A stretch of 37,675 bases of DNA from an uncultured Erysipelotrichaceae bacterium (lineage in GTDB: Bacteria > Bacillota_I > Bacilli_A > Erysipelotrichales > Erysipelotrichaceae): positions 1 to 37,675 of the forward strand of contig OMXA01000017.1 in the NCBI GenBank assembly GCA_900314905.1. Direction: 5' to 3'. Shown here in pieces: positions 7,930-36,255 of the stretch. Every line of letters starts with the position of its first letter. Position 1 is the stretch's first letter. The notes below the pieces were generated by a model that had not been told where the DNA came from, searched no databases, and saw only the letters and a list, made by a program, of their open reading frames with translations. A program made the position numbers and the translations under genes.

Positions 7930-9558
7930 TCAGCGTTCCGAAAAACCAGAACAGCCATCATGAAAGCACATATTCGCAATCCGGCGATCCACTCCGCTCA
8001 GCTCAGATACAGTCGCCGGGGAAGGAAAATAGACTGTCCCGGCTGAAGTTCTCTCTACCTTATGAAATACCTGATCCCAGATTCCTGCATGCACATCCTT
8101 CACGAGCAGACTTCTGCTCATGTTATGATCCCCAGAACCATTCTCCCAGAGATCCGTGCATTCATGAAGCCAGCATCCTCCTCGGGTCAGCGATCCGGTC
8201 ACCGTATAGCTTCCGCCTTCTGTTTTCTGCTTCAGCAGCGCCTTCATGACCCCGGCAAACAGAATCATGCCTGGAATATAGTCCAGCGGCACCCCATTCA
8301 GGTTCACGGGCTTTTCCCGGGACCCGTTCCGGATGCTGAGCCCGGTAATATCTTCTGCACACGGTGCCCAGCCAGGCCGCTCTCTCCAGACCGTATCCGA
8401 GAAACAGACCAGAGACCCATAAATCACCCCTGGATTCATCTGATGAATCTCCTCTGGAGAAAGACCGAACTGATCAAGCGAACCGCTCTGATAAGAAGAA
8501 ATGACCACATCAGCCTCTTTGATCAGCCTCTTCGCCTCTATCAGCTGATGGGGATCATTGAAATCCAGCTGAATGCTGTTCTTGCCAGCCCATCCATCCA
8601 GTTCCAGCATTGCCTGTTCCTGGTGAAGGTAGTCTTTTCTCCGGATCATCAGCACATCTGCTCCCGCCTCAGCAAGCAATCTGGTGCAAGCAGGACCGGC
8701 AATGATATGCGTCAGATCCAGCACCTTGATTCCGGAAAGAGGCCCTCGTTTCTGATCATATGCCCCGAATGACTTTGGCTGAGCCTCACCGGTTTTCAGC
8801 AGCCGGAACAGCGGCATGGAAGTCACTGCTTTTCCGACCTCTGTGTGCTCCCACTCCGTTCGATCCCTGAGCATGCACCCGCAAGCCCCATTCTGAAATG
8901 CCGCTTCCTCCAGATCAGGTGCATCCCATTTCCGGATCGCCTGGGCAGTCAGCTTCCGGTCAGAGAGAAGACTCCGGAACACAAAATCTTCCGGTTTCTT
9001 CGGAATCTTCAAGGTCTCCATCATGATCTTCTTCTGAGACTCATAATACACATGGGCAGAGAAATAGCGGTGATCCCTGGTCTCATACTTGTAGAAAGAC
9101 CCATTCAGTGCATTATCCACGCGGATTGCTGATTCATACCGGGAACGGATAAACTCCCGGTTTCCCTCATATGAACACATATAGAGTCGGATCACCTGCA
9201 GACCCGCAAAAGCCACATCGCAATAAACAGTCTTGTTAACTTCCTCAGGATCCCGCAGCCTCGCAAAGTCCTGTACCATCGCCTCATCCAGGGCAAGGAT
9301 CGCTGCCGCAGGTCCTGTCTGAAGAACCTTCTCAGGCTCAAACAGACGGGAAACTGCTTTCAGCCGCAATGAAAGCAGCACCGGCTTCAGCACTCCCGGA
9401 AATGGATTATGTGTCCAGACTGCCCGCTCAATTTCCCCTTTCCGTTTCTCATCAACCGCAAACTGAACTTCCGTCTGCGGCTCAATGCCTGTTCTCTTCT
9501 TCAGATCTTCATAGCACATCTGTGCCTGCAGGCCCTTTGTTTCCAGAACTGTACTCAT
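7930..9558 (-). CDS. CoA-transferase family III (CaiB/BaiF)-like protein
   Basis: A 542-residue two-part protein. The second half starts like a family III CoA-transferase (GIKVLDLTHIIAGPACTRLL at about 276-295, ADVLMI, LDFNDP, NPGVIYGSL), while the first half has features normally seen toward the C-terminus (HRYFSAHVYYESQK, WDAPDLEEAAF, EWEHTEVGKA). Such permuted two-domain members are known. At the position where the catalytic Asp usually follows the RPG[YFW] motif, this protein reads RPGWAPCAED (394-403), with Ala in place of Asp, so transferase activity is uncertain. The SD GAGGGG is 4 nt from the ATG. It is the last gene of the ene-reductase/aconitase X operon, 24 nt after the small subunit gene, and may activate or hold the pathway acid as a CoA ester. 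Confidence 0.75.
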   Translation of the reverse strand: MSTVLETKGLQAQMCYEDLKKRTGIEPQTEVQFAVDEKRKGEIERAVWTHNPFPGVLKPVLLSLRLKAVSRLFEPEKVLQTGPAAAILALDEAMVQDFARLRDPEEVNKTVYCDVAFAGLQVIRLYMCSYEGNREFIRSRYESAIRVDNALNGSFYKYETRDHRYFSAHVYYESQKKIMMETLKIPKKPEDFVFRSLLSDRKLTAQAIRKWDAPDLEEAAFQNGACGCMLRDRTEWEHTEVGKAVTSMPLFRLLKTGEAQPKSFGAYDQKRGPLSGIKVLDLTHIIAGPACTRLLAEAGADVLMIRRKDYLHQEQAMLELDGWAGKNSIQLDFNDPHQLIEAKRLIKEADVVISSYQSGSLDQFGLSPEEIHQMNPGVIYGSLVCFSDTVWRERPGWAPCAEDITGLSIRNGSREKPVNLNGVPLDYIPGMILFAGVMKALLKQKTEGGSYTVTGSLTRGGCWLHECTDLWENGSGDHNMSRSLLVKDVHAGIWDQVFHKVERTSAGTVYFPSPATVSELSGVDRRIANMCFHDGCSGFSER

Positions 9559-9582
9559 TTTCCCCTCACAGCACTTTTATGA

Positions 9583-10023
9583 TCACTCGGCAATCACTTC
9601 ACCGTTTTCCCGGATCGTGATCTTCATGCCCATCTTTACATAGTCCAGGAATTCGCTGCCCAGACTGTCAACGATCGGCATCTTCGCATCCGTCCAGATA
9701 TCTGACAGCAATGCCCCGGCGGCACCGATCGAGTCAATCGGATTGGCAAACAGCATGCATGCAGGATTCACGCCCCTGGAGCAGGCAGTGAACAGAATCA
9801 TTCCGCCCGTCGTGGAACCGATCGTCTGCGGAATGCATAATGCTGATCCAGCAAGATGTTTCTGATACAGCTCCCGGTTATTCTGATCCGAACAGGTTCC
9901 TTTCTTATCTCCCGTCAGCATGCTGGTCTGATAGCTCGCCAGCGTATTGAATCCCTCATGACTCACCAGTGCTGCTGCCTCTGCAGTACCTGGAACCACC
10001 ACTCTGCCATGGAATGTCTTCAT
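9583..10023 (-). CDS. Aconitase X small (swivel) subunit, DUF126
   Basis: A 146-residue protein matching the small subunit of two-part aconitase X enzymes (AcnX swivel domain, DUF126). It begins with GRVVVPGTAEA, as in the family, and contains GSTTGGMIL (69-77), NPACMLF, DSIGAAGALLSDI and GIPxVD-like MPIVDSL. Its ATG overlaps the stop of the large subunit by 4 nt (ATGA), as expected for two halves of one enzyme. Known aconitase X enzymes dehydrate mevalonate 5-phosphate (archaea) or 3-hydroxyproline (bacteria). Neither a mevalonate pathway gene nor a proline gene is beside it; the neighbours point to another hydroxy acid or a novel route. Confidence 0.88.
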   Translation of the reverse strand: MKTFHGRVVVPGTAEAAALVSHEGFNTLASYQTSMLTGDKKGTCSDQNNRELYQKHLAGSALCIPQTIGSTTGGMILFTACSRGVNPACMLFANPIDSIGAAGALLSDIWTDAKMPIVDSLGSEFLDYVKMGMKITIRENGEVIAE

Positions 10024-11297
10024 GCAAGTTTCCCTCCTGTCACAGCCTTCAGAATCTCTTCATCCTGTCCGAACCGGCAGGTCGTATACGTACGCAGCTT
10101 ATTGGAATTCGTAATCACCGGCTTATTATGGCAAAGCGGATTATCCATGTACATCAGCGGGCAGATGTAGCTTACCGTAATTCCCATAGCCTCTGCCATG
10201 CCCCATTCCGGCAGCGAATGGAATTCTTTCAGCACTCCTGGCGCCGTCGTGAACACAGTCGGAATCGCTACCTTCTTCCGGTTATTCTTCCGCAATCCAT
10301 CCGCGATGTCATGCGTCCACTGCTTCAGCTCTGTCAGGGTCAGATGCGGACAGCCGATGAAACAGAGCTTCGGTTTCGCATCCGGATTTTTCCAGACCAG
10401 CGGATAATTCTTCTCAACCCGCTCCAGTTCTGCATCATCAATCACATATACCTTCGCATCCGGCTTCAGCAGTCCTTCGCCCTGTTCTTTCGCTTCCGGT
10501 GTGAGATTGGCAATATGATACAGCCCCACTGCACCATTGGACGCACATGCTGCTCCGAAGTTCTTCAGATACGAACACACTTCCGGCGTCAATTCATTTC
10601 CGAGCCACTGATCCAGTCCTGTCACATACGGCACATCTTCCATGACCTTCATGCCGATGGCACTACCGAGCAGCTGAGCATTCGGCTTCCGGGAAGTCTT
10701 CACTTCCACCCGCCAGGAAGCTTTTCTGCCTTCCTCTGTCAGCAGTCCGAATTCCGGCACCCAGCCGAGAATGGATCCGAACAATTCCAGAATCCCGCTG
10801 TTGCGGTTGCACCGTGCTCCAAGCACGGAATTGGCATAGACTACTGCAGAACTTTCCGCCCAGCTCAGCACATCGCCTTCCTTAGGCTTATTGCCGACTT
10901 CATCAAAATAGCACGCACACGAGAACGAATCCTCACTCAGAAGTCCCAGCTTCTCCAGCTGGGCTTCATACTTCTTCTGCTCACTGTACATGAACTTATG
11001 GAATACCAGATTCTCAATCAGATTCGAAGGCACATTCGGATCCAGAGGCCGAGGATCCATCGTGAACTTCTGCTTTGATACGATGCCCGCATCAATCAGC
11101 TGATCCATGAGCCCGTAGACCGGCTTGATGACTCCGAGCCCGAAGCTCGTGACCAGATGTCCGTATTTTCCAGTTACCGGAACCATCCGCTCTGCCCCGA
11201 AAAGCTCTCCGTATCTGACCAGAGTCTCCATGACTTTTGCCATGGTTTCTCCGTTTTTCCCATCCAGTACCGCCTGCTGTTCTTCTGTCAGTTTCAT
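10020..11297 (-). CDS. Aconitase X catalytic (large) subunit, DUF521
   Basis: A 425-residue large subunit of aconitase X, an Fe-S hydro-lyase. The diagnostic stretch WAESSAVVYANSVLGAR is at 146-162, preceded by a cysteine pair in SCACYFDEVGNKP and followed by a Cys in ARCNRNSG. A second cysteine set occurs late (CFIGCPH, CPLMY, TTCRFG), as expected for cluster ligands in this family. The ATG at 11297 follows GGGAG by 6 nt; upstream frame to 11336 lies in the ene-reductase gene. It is 10 nt after that gene. By family it abstracts water from a hydroxy acid, giving an enoate or a tautomer of one. The enzyme pair with an enoate-reductase-like neighbour suggests sequential dehydration and reduction; substrate unknown. 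Confidence 0.9.
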   Translation of the reverse strand: MKLTEEQQAVLDGKNGETMAKVMETLVRYGELFGAERMVPVTGKYGHLVTSFGLGVIKPVYGLMDQLIDAGIVSKQKFTMDPRPLDPNVPSNLIENLVFHKFMYSEQKKYEAQLEKLGLLSEDSFSCACYFDEVGNKPKEGDVLSWAESSAVVYANSVLGARCNRNSGILELFGSILGWVPEFGLLTEEGRKASWRVEVKTSRKPNAQLLGSAIGMKVMEDVPYVTGLDQWLGNELTPEVCSYLKNFGAACASNGAVGLYHIANLTPEAKEQGEGLLKPDAKVYVIDDAELERVEKNYPLVWKNPDAKPKLCFIGCPHLTLTELKQWTHDIADGLRKNNRKKVAIPTVFTTAPGVLKEFHSLPEWGMAEAMGITVSYICPLMYMDNPLCHNKPVITNSNKLRTYTTCRFGQDEEILKAVTGGKLA

Positions 11298-11307
11298 AGC
11301 ATTCTCC

Positions 11308-13362
11308 CTAGATCTCCATCGCCACTTCATATGCACGCCAGATCACCGAACGCAGATTGCCGATCCCATTGCAGTCTCCGACCAGATGCACCTGCTTGCT
11401 TTCCTGTGCCAGCGGCGCAGGAATATAACCCGCACAGCTGATCACGGAGTCGCACGCAATCTCCTTTTCAGAACCATCTTTCTGCTTCACCAGAATCGAT
11501 CCATCCTTCACTTCTGCAAGCGCTGTCTCGAGATATACCGGAACCTTCTTCCAGGCAAAGTACTCACGGAGATAGGAACTATTCGCCAGACAGACTCCCT
11601 TCTGCGCAATCAGATCATCCTTCATCTCGACAATGACCGGATGCTTCCCCTGCAGGTACAGATCATAGGCAATCTCGCAGCCGGAAAGACCGCCGCCGAT
11701 GATCGCAACCGTATCTCCGACTTCTTTCCCATTCAGATAATCGCAGGCTTCGATCATTCTCTCATGACCCGGAACTGACTTCAGAACCCGCGGAACAGAG
11801 CCGGTTGCCACAATCACCGGATCCTCTCCGAACTCCCGGATCGAATGCACCTCCGTATTCAGACGCACTTCGATGTGCAGCTCTTCCATCTGCCTCCGGT
11901 ACCATGCAAGCAGATCTCTGAGCCTGCCCTTGTAGCTCTCACTGGAAGCAGCCACAAACGTTCCGCCCAGATGATCATTCTTCTCATAGATCACCGGCTC
12001 ATGTCCGCGCAGCTTCAGCACTCTTGCCGCTTCCATGCCGCCGATGCCGCCGCCGATGATCGCGACTTTCTTCGGATGCGAAGTTCTGGTGATATGGTGC
12101 TTGTCTTTCTGCATGGTCTCAGCATTCACCGCACACCTTGCAAGATGCAGCGAATCGCTGAGATCCTGATCATTCGGAACTCCTTTGTAGTGACACATGT
12201 TGAAGCAGCCGTTATGGCACAGGATGCACGGGCGGATCTCTTCCTCCTTGCCAGCCTTCATCTTCAGCACCCATTCCGGATCTGCCAGGAACTGTCTTGC
12301 AAACCCGGCTCCGTCAATCTTTCCTTCTCTGATTGCTTCCGCTGCCTTGCGCGGATTCAGCCGGCCGGCACAGACCACCGGAATATCCACAAACTTCCGG
12401 ATATGCTCCGTATCTGCAAGATTGCAGTTCTCCGGCATGTAGATCGGCGGATGCGCCCAGTACCATGCATCATACGTTCCATTATCGCAATTCAGCATGT
12501 CATAGCCCGCATCCTGCAGGAACTTCGCTGCCTTCTCGCTTTCTTCCATATCCCGGCCGGCTTCCGTGTAGTTTTCTCCAGGCAGTGCCCCCTGCCGGAA
12601 TCCCTTGGTCTTTGAGATCACGCTGTAGCGCAGGCTGACCGGGAAATCGTTTCCGCAGGCAGCCTTGATCGCCTTGACGATCTCTGCCGCAAACCGATAG
12701 CGATTCTCAAAGCTGCCGCCATATTCATCGTCACGATGATTGACATATTTCAGCGTGAACTGATCGAGCAGATAGCCCTCATGAACCGCATGGACTTCCA
12801 CCCCGTCAACCCCAGCCTGTTTCAGCAGTACTGCACACTTTGCAAAGGCTGAGATATATTCTTCAATTTCTTTCTTCGTCAGCGCTCTCGAAGGAACCTT
12901 ATCGCTCCACCGATTCGGTGCGGGCGAAGCCGTCGCGCAGATCTTATCAAAATCCATCACCGGCTTGCTGAGGGTGCGGAGAACCGGATTCACATACAGC
13001 TTCTCCATCGCCTCGCTGATCGTGAACGATCTCCCGAATCCTGCCGTCAGCTGCACGAATAGCTTCGCGCCGGTCTTATGAAATTCCGGCATCCACTTTG
13101 CAAGATCCTCATACATCTTCTTGTTGGAATACAGCCACTGTCCGAACATCGGATTATAAACCGGCTGACAGCCAGGCAATACCAGCCCGGCACCATTTCT
13201 CGCAGCCTCCAGAATGAAATCCGCTCCGGCTTTGTCAAAATGATTGACTTCCATCCATCCGAAAAGATCTGTTCCTCCCATCGACGTCATCACAATCCGG
13301 TTGCGGATCTCGCACTTGCCGATCGACCACGGAGTAAACAAGCTGTTCAGTTCTTCATCCAT
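11308..13362 (-). CDS. FMN/Fe-S/FAD ene-reductase (2-enoate / dienoyl-CoA reductase family)
   Basis: A 684-residue flavoprotein with three parts. The old-yellow-enzyme TIM barrel covers about 1-365 and includes HAVHEGYLLDQF (catalytic Tyr near 197) and NHRDDEYGGSFENR. A [4Fe-4S] site follows with Cys 379, 382, 386 and 410 (CILCHNGC and ARCAVN). Then come FAD-binding (GGGIGG, 437-442) and NAD(P)H-binding (GGGLSG, 556-561) folds. Members reduce activated C=C bonds: 2-enoate reductase, 2,4-dienoyl-CoA reductase and the bile-acid BaiCD/BaiH enzymes. The SD GGAAGGGG precedes the ATG at 13362. It is the first gene of the aconitase X operon, divergent from a TetR gene. I infer it reduces the enoate made by the aconitase X. 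The CoA-transferase-like last gene also recalls bai clusters, but no other bai gene is present. Confidence 0.92.
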   Translation of the reverse strand: MDEELNSLFTPWSIGKCEIRNRIVMTSMGGTDLFGWMEVNHFDKAGADFILEAARNGAGLVLPGCQPVYNPMFGQWLYSNKKMYEDLAKWMPEFHKTGAKLFVQLTAGFGRSFTISEAMEKLYVNPVLRTLSKPVMDFDKICATASPAPNRWSDKVPSRALTKKEIEEYISAFAKCAVLLKQAGVDGVEVHAVHEGYLLDQFTLKYVNHRDDEYGGSFENRYRFAAEIVKAIKAACGNDFPVSLRYSVISKTKGFRQGALPGENYTEAGRDMEESEKAAKFLQDAGYDMLNCDNGTYDAWYWAHPPIYMPENCNLADTEHIRKFVDIPVVCAGRLNPRKAAEAIREGKIDGAGFARQFLADPEWVLKMKAGKEEEIRPCILCHNGCFNMCHYKGVPNDQDLSDSLHLARCAVNAETMQKDKHHITRTSHPKKVAIIGGGIGGMEAARVLKLRGHEPVIYEKNDHLGGTFVAASSESYKGRLRDLLAWYRRQMEELHIEVRLNTEVHSIREFGEDPVIVATGSVPRVLKSVPGHERMIEACDYLNGKEVGDTVAIIGGGLSGCEIAYDLYLQGKHPVIVEMKDDLIAQKGVCLANSSYLREYFAWKKVPVYLETALAEVKDGSILVKQKDGSEKEIACDSVISCAGYIPAPLAQESKQVHLVGDCNGIGNLRSVIWRAYEVAMEI

Positions 13363-13517
13363 ATTTTCCCCTTCCTGATGAGCAGTAATTAGACATATGT
13401 TCATCTTTCTGCTTCTATTCTACCCTGCATGCAGGAAATCTTTCTGTACGAATTATGCAGAAATATCTGTTAATATTCAATGATGCATAGAATGTCTATC
13501 AGAAAAGAGGAAATCCC
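13363..13517. promoter_or_regulatory. Divergent regulatory region with two symmetric sites
   Basis: The 155-nt gap between the ene-reductase and the divergent TetR gene holds a perfect 12-bp palindrome CCTGCATGCAGG (13424-13435) and an imperfect inverted repeat TTTCTG-N11-CAGAAA (13441-13463). Minus-strand TAGAAT-like and plus-strand TAATAT (13471-13476) and TAGAAT (13488-13493) boxes lie around them. One or both sites are candidate operators for the TetR protein. Which one binds cannot be decided from sequence. Confidence 0.5.
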
Positions 13518-14087
13518 ATGGATCGAAGGCAGAGAAAAACAGAAGAATCCATCTTCCGAGCCCTGAACCAGCTCCTTGAACAGGGAAAAGACATCAATAC
13601 CATCTCCGTCCGCGAACTGACCGCAGCCGCCGATATCACAAGGAGCACATTCTACCTTCATTATCACGATATCCCCGACCTGATGAACAGCTATCTTTCT
13701 GAGTATCTCGCCAGCATTGCGGGCATCATTCAGAAAGACTACAGCAGGGAACCAGGAAAAGACCGCAACCTGTATCTTCAGCTTCTGAAATTCATGGAAG
13801 ACAACCGTCAGCGCACCACTCTGGTCTTCAGCACCAGAAACTATTCCTCTTATTCCCGGTTCATCGAAGAAGGCATCGTGCCATATCTCGAAGCCAAGTA
13901 TCGCGCCTATCTGCCCCAGGCGGACCAGAAGAAGCTGCATACGATCTCAATCTACACATCCCGTGGAACGGCAGGCATCATTCTGGAATGGATTGCTGGC
14001 GGATATCAGGAAAGCGGAACGCAGATCGCAGAAGAGATCATCGAAGCAATCGAGTTCTATACCAGTTACTTCCGGGACAATTTCTGA
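13518..14087 (+). CDS. TetR-family regulator of the aconitase X operon
   Basis: A 189-residue protein with the N-terminal TetR domain: ISVRELTAAADITRSTFYLHY (about 29-49) is the helix-turn-helix, followed by HDIPDLMNSYL. The C-terminal 120 residues are helical and should bind a ligand. GAGG lies 7 nt before the ATG. It is transcribed away from the ene-reductase operon across a 155-nt gap that contains palindromic sequences, the standard layout for a local repressor. The inducer is likely to be the substrate, or its CoA ester, of that pathway. It is not closely similar to the other TetR protein at 1040. Confidence 0.9.
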   Translation: MDRRQRKTEESIFRALNQLLEQGKDINTISVRELTAAADITRSTFYLHYHDIPDLMNSYLSEYLASIAGIIQKDYSREPGKDRNLYLQLLKFMEDNRQRTTLVFSTRNYSSYSRFIEEGIVPYLEAKYRAYLPQADQKKLHTISIYTSRGTAGIILEWIAGGYQESGTQIAEEIIEAIEFYTSYFRDNF

Positions 14088-14282: not shown

Positions 14283-15458
14283 CTACTCTGAATCTTTCGC
14301 CCTTGCAAGAATCCTGTTGTATTCTGTCTGAACTTCTTCCAGATTCTGTTCTATCATGCGATCCTGTTCACTGAGTTCTGTCTTCTCTGCTGTGACCGTC
14401 ATGGTACCATCCTCCGCAATCCATGCATCGAAATCCTCATTCTCACTCAGGATCTTCCGCTGAAGAACCAGGAGCTCCTCCAATGTCTGCCGGTACTCTT
14501 TTTCAATCGAAGAACGCCGGATCATATCCTGAACCTTCGGCGAAGTGATCGGAATCAGCTCGGCATTTGCACTGCTTTGGGGACTCATGAAGCATCCGAT
14601 CATGCAGAGAAAGCAGAGAATTGCTGCAGGAATCGGCTTCAGCTTTCCGGAGTCATGCTTTAATGCATGTCTGATCCGATATTTTACAGGTTCCGCAGAG
14701 AAGCCTGAGGATTTCAGAGTTATGAACCTGGAAGAACGGCGGGCAAAGTGCAGCATCACTTCTGCATAGTCATCCGGAGAAATGACTCCTTCTGCCAGAG
14801 TCTGCTCATCTGCGCGGATCTCAAAGTCCTGACTCATCAGGCAGAAGGCAAGCCAGCAAAGCGGATTGAACCAGTGAGTGATCACGGCTATCCAGAACAG
14901 TAATTTCACCAGAGGATCTTTATTCCGGATATGAGCGGATTCATGACGGATGACTGCTGCTCTTTCATCTGTTTCCATATCTGCCGGAAGATAAATCACC
15001 GGGTGAAGGATCCCGCAGGTAAAGGGTTCCTGAATGGATCTGCTCTCGATGATTGCAGAACCAGACGCCTTTGGAAGTAATTTCCGGAATCTCTGATAGG
15101 ACCAGCATGACCGCACAGACAGCACTGCAATCCCGCATAGCCAGATAATTGTGAAAATGGAGCTAAGCGAATTCCGGGAAGACTCAGGCATCCATGCCGC
15201 ACGCAGAAACCCATCTGCATAAGCGCTTTCAGCAATCCCGGGTTCCGTCTGAGAATGATTCATCAAGAGCGACGCCCAGGGAACCGGAACCGCCACCGGG
15301 CATACCATCCGGAACAATACCGGAATCCAGAGCAGGCACGACCAGAAGCGCTTTGCATGAACAAGAGCACACCTGAACAGCATCACGATCATAATAGACA
15401 CCGATGCCTCGAGAGACATTCTCAGAATTGTGCGGAACAATGTCTCCATCATGATCAT
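14283..15458 (-). CDS. BlaR1/MecR1-like M56 membrane metalloprotease
   Basis: A 391-residue membrane protein. Hydrophobic segments occur around 17-31, 40-60, 101-115 and near 185-205, plus one near 272-290. The zinc site HESAH is at 172-176 and the downstream ligand region is QDFEIRADEQ (about 210-219), the M56 pattern. In the canonical systems the protease cleaves the BlaI repressor after sensing a beta-lactam. Here the extracellular C-terminal part is only about 100 residues, charged and probably coiled-coil (MIRRSSIEKEYRQTLEELL), not a penicillin-binding domain, so the signal must differ. The ATG overlaps the stop of blaI; ATG codons at 15458, 15452 and 15449 are all possible, with the GGAG spacing favouring 15452. 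Confidence 0.87.
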   Translation of the reverse strand: MIMMETLFRTILRMSLEASVSIMIVMLFRCALVHAKRFWSCLLWIPVLFRMVCPVAVPVPWASLLMNHSQTEPGIAESAYADGFLRAAWMPESSRNSLSSIFTIIWLCGIAVLSVRSCWSYQRFRKLLPKASGSAIIESRSIQEPFTCGILHPVIYLPADMETDERAAVIRHESAHIRNKDPLVKLLFWIAVITHWFNPLCWLAFCLMSQDFEIRADEQTLAEGVISPDDYAEVMLHFARRSSRFITLKSSGFSAEPVKYRIRHALKHDSGKLKPIPAAILCFLCMIGCFMSPQSSANAELIPITSPKVQDMIRRSSIEKEYRQTLEELLVLQRKILSENEDFDAWIAEDGTMTVTAEKTELSEQDRMIEQNLEEVQTEYNRILARAKDSE

Positions 15459-15817
15459 TTTCTCCTTTTCCGGTACGACCGGATCAGTTCCTCCAGTTCA
15501 TCTGCTTCCTGGTCTGACAGCACACGGTCTTTCATGAATGCCGTCAGGAACACCGGCAGAGATCCGGAATAATCTGTCTGAACAAAATCAGAAGCTTTCT
15601 GATGATAGTATTCGTCCCGGGAACAGCACATCCTGAGACGATGATCTTCTGACAAGAGTAGCTTCTTTTCCTCCATCCTATGGATCAGCGTGAATACGGT
15701 GGATTTCTTCCATCCATACTTTGCAGCGCAGGTTCTTACTGCATCCATGGAAGACATGTCTGGATCTGCCCAGATCAGCTCTGCAATCTTTTCTTCTGCC
15801 TCACTCAATGTATTCAT
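15455..15817 (-). CDS. BlaI/MecI-family transcriptional repressor
   Basis: About 120 residues: winged helix with LSEAEEKIAELIW at the start and GWKKSTVFTLIHRMEEKKLL as recognition helix and wing, then a dimerisation half with an acidic end (DQEADELEELIRSYRKRRK). The ATG at 15817 has GGAGG 8 nt upstream, better than the ATG at 15832. It precedes the M56 protease in an overlapping operon and has a strong promoter with a CTACA-N3-TGTAG operator just downstream of the start of transcription, so it should repress its own operon. No beta-lactamase or penicillin-binding protein gene lies nearby; other targets in the genome are likely. Confidence 0.92.
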   Translation of the reverse strand: MNTLSEAEEKIAELIWADPDMSSMDAVRTCAAKYGWKKSTVFTLIHRMEEKKLLLSEDHRLRMCCSRDEYYHQKASDFVQTDYSGSLPVFLTAFMKDRVLSDQEADELEELIRSYRKRRK

Positions 15818-15836
15818 TCTTGATTCCTCCAAAGGT

Positions 15837-34559: not shown

Positions 34560-35777
34560 TCAGAATCCAAGCTCTTTAGGAAAATAGATCCGGTCATCAC
34601 TTCTCTGCGGACCATGCACGAGACTGTAGACAATATTCGAAGCCCGGGAAAGCTCCAGGATCTCTCCGCCATGCATGCGCACCCAGATCGCATTTCCCGC
34701 ATCGCCGGTATACGGCACATAGGGGCGCTGTCCTACTTCATCCTTGCAGAGATAATAGCGCGGATCATAGCCAAGTGCCTTCTCCTTGGCCCGTACCTTG
34801 CGGATATTGGATGGAGAAGCCTCCATGAAATCAAACAGGCCGCGATTCAATAACCGTCTCGAAAGATCCGAAAGAATCGGATCCCTTGCCCTGGTCAGCT
34901 TCTCAAACGCATACGCGCACGAATATTCATCCAGTGAAAAATATTCTTCCAGAGAAAGCTTCTGCCCACTGATCAGCGTATCCAGCTGCGAAATCGTCTT
35001 CGGCATCTTCCCTTCCGCATGAAGATCTCTCATCCTTCGGAACAGGCTGTCCAGCATATTCTCATAGCTTCTTGCTGTCGGATGATAGTAGACCTGCCAG
35101 TACATGTGATAGCGGGCCATGATGTAATTCTCAACCGCATACGTGCCGCTTTCCTTCACGACAATGCGGTCATCTGCCACTCGCAGGATCCGCAGCAGCC
35201 GTTCCAGATCAAACTCCCCGTACTTTGTACCCGTGAAATACGCATCCCTCAGCAGATAATCCATGCGATCCGCATCCAGCTGCGCACTCACCATCTGCGG
35301 CAGCAGTTTATTTGCAGACCGATGGCGGATCACATCCGCAACATCCTTGGAAAGACCAGCCGCCGCATGTTCCAGAATTCCGGAGATCTCCGGATCTTCC
35401 TCGACGATCCGGCATGAATACAGTTCATGATTCTCTCCGGAAATCCGCTCAAAGGCATGCGAATACGGACCATGCCCGATATCATGCAGAAGTCCTGCAA
35501 GCATGACCGTGACCTTTTCTCGTTCATTCAGCGCTTTTGAGATATCCGGAACCTCTGTGACCATGCGCCGCACCAGCTCATACACGCCGAGCGAATGCCC
35601 GAAGCGGGTATGATCCGCAGTATGGTAGACCATGAACGCTCCGCCCAGCTGCCGGATCCGGCGCATCCTCTGAAACCAGGCCGAATTGATGCACTGCCAT
35701 ACTACTTCATAATCCACATGGATATAGCCATGAATCGGATCTCTCAGCACTTTGACTTCATCAGTTTTCTCAAACAT
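34560..35777 (-). CDS. HD-domain dNTP triphosphohydrolase (YwfO-like)
   Basis: A 405-residue phosphohydrolase. RDPIHGYIHV and RRIRQLGGAFMVYHTADHTRFGHSLGVYELV open the domain; the metal site has His in HTRFGHS, His-Asp in AGLLHDIGHGPYSHAFE and Asp in DADRMDYLLRD. This is the YwfO/EF1143 group, tetrameric enzymes that hydrolyse dNTPs to nucleosides and triphosphate. The ATG at 35777 is preferred to 35855 because the latter extends through ispF; GAGGA stands 6 nt before it and it overlaps the ispF stop by 8 nt. Confidence 0.9.
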   Translation of the reverse strand: MFEKTDEVKVLRDPIHGYIHVDYEVVWQCINSAWFQRMRRIRQLGGAFMVYHTADHTRFGHSLGVYELVRRMVTEVPDISKALNEREKVTVMLAGLLHDIGHGPYSHAFERISGENHELYSCRIVEEDPEISGILEHAAAGLSKDVADVIRHRSANKLLPQMVSAQLDADRMDYLLRDAYFTGTKYGEFDLERLLRILRVADDRIVVKESGTYAVENYIMARYHMYWQVYYHPTARSYENMLDSLFRRMRDLHAEGKMPKTISQLDTLISGQKLSLEEYFSLDEYSCAYAFEKLTRARDPILSDLSRRLLNRGLFDFMEASPSNIRKVRAKEKALGYDPRYYLCKDEVGQRPYVPYTGDAGNAIWVRMHGGEILELSRASNIVYSLVHGPQRSDDRIYFPKELGF

Positions 35778-36255
35778 GCATGTCCTCTTCCAGAAGCACG
35801 ACTGCCTGTGCAGCAGCGCCCTCTCCCCTGCCGACAAAGCCGAGTCCTTCGCCACGGGTTGCTTTCACACTGATCTGATCGATAGAGCAATCAAGAGCCA
35901 GTGCAAAATTCTCCCGCATCTTCTGAATATACGGAGCCATCTTCGGCTTCTCAATCAGAACCAGGCAATCCGCATTGCCGAGATGGTACCCTTTCTCTTT
36001 CATCATGCGTGCCACTTCTTTCAGAATAATCTGAGAATTCACGCCTTCCCATTCCGGAGCGGTGTCCGGAAACCATTTCCCGAGATCTCCTAACGCAAGT
36101 GCTCCGAGAATCGCTTCTGCTAATGCATGGGTCAGCGCATCCGCATCACTATGCCCGACCAGTCCTTTCTCATAAGGAATCTCCACCCCGCCGAGCACCA
36201 GCTTCCTGCCTTCTGCAAGCCGGTGAATATCCGTTGATTGTCCGATTCGCATCAT
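35770..36255 (-). CDS. ispF: 2-C-methyl-D-erythritol 2,4-cyclodiphosphate synthase
   Basis: A 161-residue trimeric zinc enzyme of the MEP isoprenoid pathway. Metal ligands are Asp9 and His11 in STDIHRL and the His in VGHSDADAL. GDLGKWFPDT and the C-terminal FVGRGEGAAA are family blocks; the usual 'KATTTE' reads KATRGE here. GGAG lies 7 nt before the first of two ATGs. The organism therefore makes isoprenoids by MEP, which argues against the aconitase X genes being part of a mevalonate pathway. Confidence 0.96.
   Translation of the reverse strand: MMRIGQSTDIHRLAEGRKLVLGGVEIPYEKGLVGHSDADALTHALAEAILGALALGDLGKWFPDTAPEWEGVNSQIILKEVARMMKEKGYHLGNADCLVLIEKPKMAPYIQKMRENFALALDCSIDQISVKATRGEGLGFVGRGEGAAAQAVVLLEEDMHV

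What the first reader, a model, noticed from the sequence alone, without database searches (positions are those of the whole stretch)
7930..14087. Ene-reductase / aconitase X / CoA-transferase-like module with its own TetR regulator
Sequence shows one operon: a flavin/Fe-S/FAD C=C reductase, both aconitase X subunits (overlapping ATGA), and a family III CoA-transferase-like protein, with a divergent TetR gene. Known aconitase X enzymes act on 3-hydroxyproline or mevalonate 5-phosphate. ispF in this window implies the MEP route, and no proline gene is near. A dehydratase next to an enoate-type reductase suggests removal of water then reduction of the double bond, a fermentative route that would use a hydroxy acid as electron sink. 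The substrate is unknown; I know of no described pathway with this gene set.
Basis: partly seen in the sequence, partly recalled or inferred. Interest (0 to 1): 0.72.

Follow-up and report, generated by a model that had tools for sequence, protein, structure and literature searches.

The report
Gut hydroxy-acid dehydratase–ene-reductase pair
Many gut and rumen bacteria carry a two-part iron-sulfur dehydratase that is repeatedly paired with a flavin enzyme that reduces double bonds, so together they probably strip a hydroxyl group from an organic acid that has not been identified.

Summary
The four-gene unit is not conserved; a three-gene core is: OYE-type reductase plus both aconitase X (AcnX) subunits. 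At E<=1e-4 none of 88 related loci holds the CoA-transferase or this TetR. Of 139 AcnX loci, 102 have an OYE-family gene within 2 kb, 29 more lie in genomes with a close OYE elsewhere, and 8 have no close OYE seen. The neighbours come from three OYE lineages; one clade is rejected (AU p 3e-11). The AcnX clade stands apart from three type I hydroxyproline references. It keeps the family's catalytic residues but not the hydroxyproline-binding Asp or the phosphate-binding Asn residues. Papers of 2021 and 2023 give AcnX types IIc-f as of unknown function. Best reading: a CoA-free path, 3-hydroxycarboxylate to 2-enoate to saturated acid, spending NAD(P)H. Dehydration chemistry and functional coupling are well supported by sequence; the substrate is unknown and nothing was assayed. 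The CoA-transferase is a rare add-on that in one genome overlaps the OYE gene with no AcnX found.

The parts
11308..13404 (-). OYE-family ene-reductase (FMN barrel, 4Fe-4S, FAD/NAD domains; 698 aa from the first ATG, probably starting at Met15)
   Evidence: Pfam; nearest PDB kin 2,4-dienoyl-CoA reductase 1ps9 and 2-naphthoyl-CoA reductase 6qkg by sequence and fold (model pLDDT 79.3); Tyr211 and Cys393, 396, 400, 424 invariant in 13 sequences
10020..11297 (-). Aconitase X large subunit (type II), three cluster cysteines C127, C316, C379
   Evidence: Pfam AcnX 1.4e-90; residues mapped by eye on alignments with TkAcnX/AtAcnX; tree
9583..10023 (-). Aconitase X small (swivel) subunit with the catalytic Ser70 in IGSTTGG; overlaps the large-subunit gene by ATGA
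   Evidence: Pfam AcnX_swivel_put 2.2e-12
7930..9558 (-). CoA-transferase family III-like protein, 542 aa, candidate catalytic Asp426; accessory, not conserved with AcnX
   Evidence: Pfam; full-length orthologues only in G868 (overlapping OYE, no AcnX found) among 155 genomes of the family, and in Butyrivibrio sp. Su6 among 50 AcnX genomes
13518..14087 (+). TetR-type regulator, divergent from the operon
   Evidence: Pfam TetR_C_8; TetR-type genes are also divergent in L193 and L199
13405..13517 (.). 113-base divergent intergenic region, presumed operator/promoter
   Evidence: position only; not tested

Best explanation
OYE and AcnX form a two-enzyme reductive dehydroxylation path. AcnX (large plus small subunit, probably [4Fe-4S]) removes water from a free 3-hydroxycarboxylate: Ser70 of the small subunit takes the alpha proton, the cluster iron with Glu148 and Lys400 takes the hydroxyl, and Ser149, Lys400, Tyr404 and Thr71 hold the carboxylate. 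The resulting 2-enoate is reduced by the FMN/4Fe-4S/FAD reductase with NAD(P)H (proton from Tyr211) to the saturated acid, which makes the dehydration irreversible and disposes of two electrons. Local TetR or MarR genes would sense the acid. Shown: gene content, conservation of catalytic residues, co-occurrence, pairing with more than one OYE lineage. Inferred: residue roles (by homology), reaction direction, free acid rather than CoA ester, electron-sink role. The substrate is unknown; the pocket positions (Val49, Asp81, Arg83, small-subunit Thr72) argue against hydroxyproline and against a 5-phosphate.
For: Co-occurrence: in 392 genomes of the phylum 27 have AcnX over the cut-off, 24 the close OYE, 21 both (Fisher 2e-26); in 393 of the class of Butyrivibrio Su6 24, 24 and 14 (2e-13). 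In 10 of the 21 phylum pairs the genes are not neighbours, so linkage alone does not explain it. Adjacency: OYE-family gene within 2 kb in 102 of 139 loci; in the 99 measured the gap is at most 503 bases and 97 are on the same strand. Three OYE lineages next to AcnX, one clade rejected; in the AcnX tree the OYE3 label needs 6 changes, at least 4 forced, so partners changed while the pairing stayed. Counting all three lineages, 22 of 27 phylum and 22 of 24 class genomes with AcnX have an OYE partner. Residues: against the structures described in PMC8184944. OYE fold nearest to enoyl/dienoyl reductases.
Against: No substrate, assay or expression data. In 8 of 139 loci no close OYE was seen in the genome (G445, G220, G393, G397, G489, G332, G380, G475; the G475 contig ends inside the gene; distant OYEs elsewhere were not searched for in most), and the close OYE occurs without AcnX in 3 phylum and 10 class genomes, so each can serve another path. 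Genomes are related, so the Fisher values are inflated; the OYE threshold was set at a gap in the scores after seeing them. OYE's nearest solved kin act on CoA esters, which fits a CoA route as well. In Rhodococcus opacus a 48% identical AcnX has no OYE beside it.
Confidence: 0.6

Rival explanations
1. CoA route: the family III CoA-transferase (and unknown enzymes in other species) moves CoA from the reduced acyl-CoA to the hydroxy acid or enoate, and the OYE reduces an enoyl-CoA; AcnX acts on the free acid before activation.
For: CoA-transferase in the window operon; OYE (75%) and CoA-transferase (64-65%) overlap in G868; OYE's nearest solved kin are CoA-ester reductases; candidate catalytic Asp426 kept.
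Against: No such gene in 88 related loci at E<=1e-4 and no match at E<=1e-10 in 47 of 50 AcnX genomes (two of the three matches cover only the domain shared by the family); G868 has no AcnX hit (81% complete).
Confidence: 0.17
2. AcnX works in the hydration direction or the two enzymes compete for the same enoate: the unsaturated acid is the imported substrate, reduced by OYE or hydrated by AcnX, e.g. as detoxification.
For: The archaeal enzyme's reaction is reversible and was assayed by hydration (PMC10040528, passage); 13 genomes hold the close OYE without AcnX.
Against: Pairing in one operon favours one sequence of steps.
Confidence: 0.12
3. [quoted passage not shown]
For: Same family; small-subunit Thr72 as in AtAcnX.
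Against: The position of AtAcnX Asp203 is Val49 here; the NCBIfam model scores 133 bits against a cut-off of 700; separate clade, 100/99 support; no proline racemase/epimerase family gene in the window's genome, whereas two type I references sit beside 4-hydroxyproline epimerase genes.
Confidence: 0.05
4. Phosphomevalonate dehydratase-like enzyme in lipid or isoprenoid metabolism.
For: Best PDB match is TkAcnX; same three cluster cysteines.
Against: Phosphate-binding Asn53 and Asn79 of TkAcnX are not kept (Asp81 at the latter); the window carries ispF.
Confidence: 0.04

Closest known systems
Archaeal phosphomevalonate dehydratase, AcnX type IIb (TkAcnX 7cnr/7cns)
   Same: two subunits, three cluster cysteines, catalytic Ser, Glu, Lys, Tyr; 3-hydroxycarboxylate chemistry
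   Different: substrate-specific residues differ; paired with an ene-reductase; bacterial
[quoted passage not shown]
   Same: fold and carboxylate/hydroxyl-binding residues
   Different: no Asp at the ring-nitrogen position, third cysteine as in type IIb, no proline racemase family gene in the genome
AcnX types IIc-IIf (named in PMC8184944, PMC10040528)
   Same: two-subunit bacterial AcnX without either set of landmark residues; function unknown
   Different: which letter this clade has, if any, could not be told: the supplementary figure was not read
BaiCD / long bilirubin reductase / 2,4-dienoyl-CoA reductase class of OYE
   Same: FMN barrel, 4Fe-4S cluster, FAD/NAD domains
   Different: NCBIfam BaiCD 349 bits against a cut-off of 825, bilirubin reductase 336 against 750: another subfamily
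Reductive loops with family III CoA-transferase (phenyllactate Fld, carnitine Cai; recalled, from no call)
   Same: hydroxy acid to enoate to saturated acid in bacteria without oxygen
   Different: those dehydrate CoA esters with other dehydratases; here the dehydratase family acts on free acids

Membership tests
Aconitase X family | AcnX and swivel domains over the curated cut-off | tested here: met
   304 bits vs 31.5; 47 bits vs 27
Aconitase X family | catalytic Ser (S), Glu, Ser, Lys, Tyr and cluster Cys (L) | tested here: met
   S70 and T71 of S; C127 E148 S149 C316 C379 K400 Y404 of L, invariant or nearly so in 16 sequences; mapping read by eye
AcnX type I / IIa (cis-3-hydroxyproline dehydratase) | Asp203 (AtAcnX numbering) that binds the ring nitrogen | tested here: not met
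   Val49 (alignments; read by eye across a two-residue gap)
AcnX type I / IIa (cis-3-hydroxyproline dehydratase) | groups with hydroxyproline-cluster enzymes | tested here: not met
   85-row clade apart from 3 type I references, 100/99; no type IIa sequence was in the tree
AcnX type IIb (phosphomevalonate dehydratase) | Asn53, Asn79 for the 5-phosphate | tested here: not met
   no conserved Asn at the first, Asp81 in 15 of 16 rows at the second
BaiCD bile-acid reductase | NCBIfam equivalog cut-off | tested here: not met
   348.9 vs 825 bits
Bilirubin reductase | NCBIfam cut-off | tested here: not met
   335.5 vs 750 bits
OYE-type enoate/enoyl reductase (class with 4Fe-4S and FAD domain) | FMN barrel, four cluster Cys, FAD/NAD domain, Tyr proton donor | tested here: met
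   (role of Tyr by alignment with 1ps9)
CoA-transferase family III | CoA_transf_3 domain with catalytic Asp | tested here: inconclusive
   126.9 bits over residues 274-476 (profile 1-214 of 366), Asp426 aligned by eye to the D-x3-G site; the first 273 residues are not covered by Pfam
Free 3-hydroxycarboxylate reductive dehydroxylation | product and redox assay | not testable with these tools
   needs purified enzymes or mutants

The most novel reading that the evidence does not exclude
A CoA-independent reductive dehydroxylation of a free 3-hydroxycarboxylate, by an uncharacterised class of aconitase X coupled to recruited ene-reductases, is a widespread inducible electron sink in gut and rumen Firmicutes; its substrate could be a dietary or host acid (guesses: citrate via aconitate to tricarballylate, a 3-hydroxy-3-methyl acid, carnitine), giving enzymes to a gut metabolite that now has none.
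Probability: 0.4. Interest if true: 0.75.

Novelty: new variant of a known kind. Interest (0 to 1): 0.58.

Why it matters
The 2021 and 2023 aconitase X papers that I read in part give types IIc-IIf as of unknown function. This clade has a recurring partner, is common (584 relatives confirmed in one capped scan; the 80 listed are mostly from gut and rumen samples), and occurs in named isolates, so the open function becomes a defined experiment: one dehydratase, one reductase, a panel of 3-hydroxy acids. A new electron sink in gut fermenters would bear on hydrogen and short-chain acid balance.

Tried and rejected
Four-gene module: rejected; CoA-transferase and this TetR are not in 88 relatives at E<=1e-4; one search showed one weak TetR match (25%) several genes away in L018. 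Neighbourhood as substrate clue: beyond the core no family recurs in more than a few loci (one search counts; read by eye). One-off neighbours (fumarate-reductase-like genes after AcnX in Butyrivibrio Su6; 2-hydroxyglutaryl-CoA-dehydratase-like, BadF and CdhC-like genes beside separate OYE copies; DeoC and patatin genes beside others) were judged too scattered to name a substrate. Rhodococcus opacus plasmid: same pocket residues, beside a metabolite/H+ symporter-like gene (424 bits, cut-off 443), an alpha/beta hydrolase and an SDR; suggestive of an organic acid only. AcnX-L model: pLDDT 61.5, used only for the fold match to TkAcnX. Literature: full-text searches for aconitase X, DUF521, DUF126, AcnX/PF04412 and the two enzyme names and for enoate reductase, gut and CoA-transferase combinations listed nothing that by title or abstract start pairs AcnX with an OYE; some lists were capped (15 of 33, 20 of 470, 12 of 14, 15 of 81), subscription papers are mostly absent. 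Read: PMC8184944 sections 4, 9, 11-14; passages of PMC10040528, PMC5144071, PMC12238238. Tricarballylate: one listing, papers not read.
Full report
What is there. The window carries, on the minus strand, an OYE-type reductase (11308-13404), the aconitase X large (10020-11297) and small (9583-10023) subunits overlapping by ATGA, and a CoA-transferase family III-like protein (7930-9558), with a divergent TetR gene (13518-14087). AcnX and CoA_transf_3 have one match each in the genome. ispF lies at 35773-36255.

What is conserved. The small subunit is next door in 80 of 80; the OYE lies in the locus in 68 of 80, and in 8 of 8 congeneric loci; CoA-transferase and TetR in 0 of 88 at E<=1e-4. Within the window's genus 9 of 37 genomes have AcnX, and 0 of 24 of another family of the order, so the module is patchy.

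Less biased samples. Of 392 genomes of the phylum, 27 have AcnX over the cut-off, 24 the close OYE (56% identity or more), 21 both. Of 393 of the class of Butyrivibrio Su6 (G435), 24 have AcnX at E<=1e-60, 24 the close OYE (53% or more), 14 both. The OYE limits were set at gaps in the scores after seeing them. One-sided Fisher 2e-26 and 2e-13, and 2e-25 and 2e-12 without the two centre genomes; relatedness inflates these. In 10 of the 21 phylum pairs the genes are not neighbours. Close OYE without AcnX: 3 and 10 genomes.

Partner swaps. A profile search found an OYE-family gene within 2 kb in 99 of 129 loci (80 nearest + 8 genus + window + 20 phylum + 20 class; L155, a copy of L073, left out; the Rhodococcus plasmid counted apart, none), and in 3 of 10 further loci: 102 of 139. 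In the 99 the gap is at most 503 bases and 97 are on one strand; L092 and L093 are divergent. Of the 37 others, 29 have the close OYE elsewhere in the genome and 8 none seen. A few rows are identical between samples (L088/L195, L185/L187), and G552 gave two loci, so 139 is not 139 independent species. The neighbours fall in three lineages: OYE1 (55-81% identical to the window's), OYE2 (38-39%; L189, L190, each followed by a chemoreceptor-like gene) and OYE3 (29-30%; L073, L170, L184, L185, L187, L188, L193, L199, L200). With all three, 22 of 27 phylum and 22 of 24 class genomes with AcnX have a partner. Trees place OYE2 among OYEs from genomes or loci without AcnX beside them; holding all AcnX neighbours as one clade is rejected (p-AU 3e-11; OYE1+OYE2 1.6e-54; groups were named after a first tree, so these are optimistic). 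In the AcnX tree OYE3 needs 6 changes, at least 4 forced. The same pairing was thus made more than once, the strongest sign that the two enzymes act in sequence.

Chemistry. PMC8184944 (sections read) gives the residues of TkAcnX and AtAcnX. In the clade Ser70 and Thr71 (small subunit) and Cys127, Glu148, Ser149, Cys316, Cys379, Lys400, Tyr404 (large subunit) are kept. AtAcnX Asp203 corresponds to Val49, TkAcnX Asn53 has no conserved counterpart, Asn79 is Asp81 (15 of 16 rows), and a basic residue (Arg83 in 15, Lys in L024) is added; these specificity calls rest on alignments read by eye across a two-residue gap and on no reliable model (AcnX-L pLDDT 61.5). Both known AcnX reactions remove a 3-hydroxyl and a 2-proton from a free carboxylate; on a non-amino substrate this gives the 2-enoate that an OYE can reduce. 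The OYE model (pLDDT 79.3) matches 2,4-dienoyl-CoA reductase and 2-naphthoyl-CoA reductase best; the HEGYL and YDxW..HPP motifs are shared by OYE1, OYE2 and OYE3 and by nearer paralogues, and differ in classical ones.

CoA-transferase. Full-length orthologues (64-65%) were found in G868 (of 155 genomes of the family), where the gene overlaps the end of a 75% identical OYE and no AcnX was found (81% complete), and in Butyrivibrio sp. Su6 (of 50 AcnX genomes, out of the 80), beside an MFS gene and, by eye, ABC-transporter-like genes. It is thus next to an OYE in two genomes, in one of them without AcnX, and a CoA variant of the route in such species is possible.

Regulators. TetR-type genes are divergent in the window, L193 and L199; MarR-type genes lie within 1.5 kb of 7 loci (one weak, E 1e-5), of 130 examined with few seeds. 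This fits, but does not show, an inducible path.

Against the hydroxyproline reading. Beyond the residues and the tree (three type I references and two other type II sequences on the other side of a 100/99 branch; no archaeal or type IIa sequence in it), the genome has no proline racemase family match (control genomes rang), and two type I references lie beside 4-hydroxyproline epimerase genes.

Known or new. PMC10040528 (passages) says the functions of types IIc-IIf remain unknown, and PMC8184944 that they have no landmark residues. My searches listed no paper on this pairing. I file it as a new variant: known enzyme families, unassigned subclass, new and recurrent pairing, unknown substrate.

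Noticed in passing
L018:11717-14654 (Butyrivibrio sp. Su6): AcnX is followed by a putative membrane protein (no Pfam match), a fumarate-reductase-like flavoprotein and an Fe-S subunit; another enoate-type reductase beside AcnX, though this genome also has OYE elsewhere.
   Followed up: partly
L150, L151, L153, L149, L143: Separate OYE1 copies sit beside BadF-type activators and 2-hydroxyglutaryl-CoA dehydratase D-like proteins and, in four loci, a 237-242 aa protein that is CdhC-like by Pfam in L149 (not every member was scanned): a possible second dehydratase-reductase pairing.
   Followed up: partly
L236:109-3752: OYE and CoA-transferase-like genes overlap in a genome without detectable AcnX.
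   Followed up: partly
L180:10521-16730 (Rhodococcus opacus PD630 plasmid): 48% identical AcnX pair in an actinomycete beside symporter-like, HsaD-like hydrolase, SDR and LysR genes.
   Followed up: partly
window 14283-15832: BlaI/BlaR1-like pair (Penicillinase_R and M56 peptidase).
   Followed up: no
L174:7978-9650, L175:7109-8727: Very divergent AcnX pairs (28-33%) between a GH2-like gene and a HAD-like gene (by eye) in two genomes; several catalytic motifs look lost.
   Followed up: no
L071:11833-12867, L090:11709-12731: PanE/ApbA-like reductase gene (family by eye) shortly after AcnX-S.
   Followed up: no
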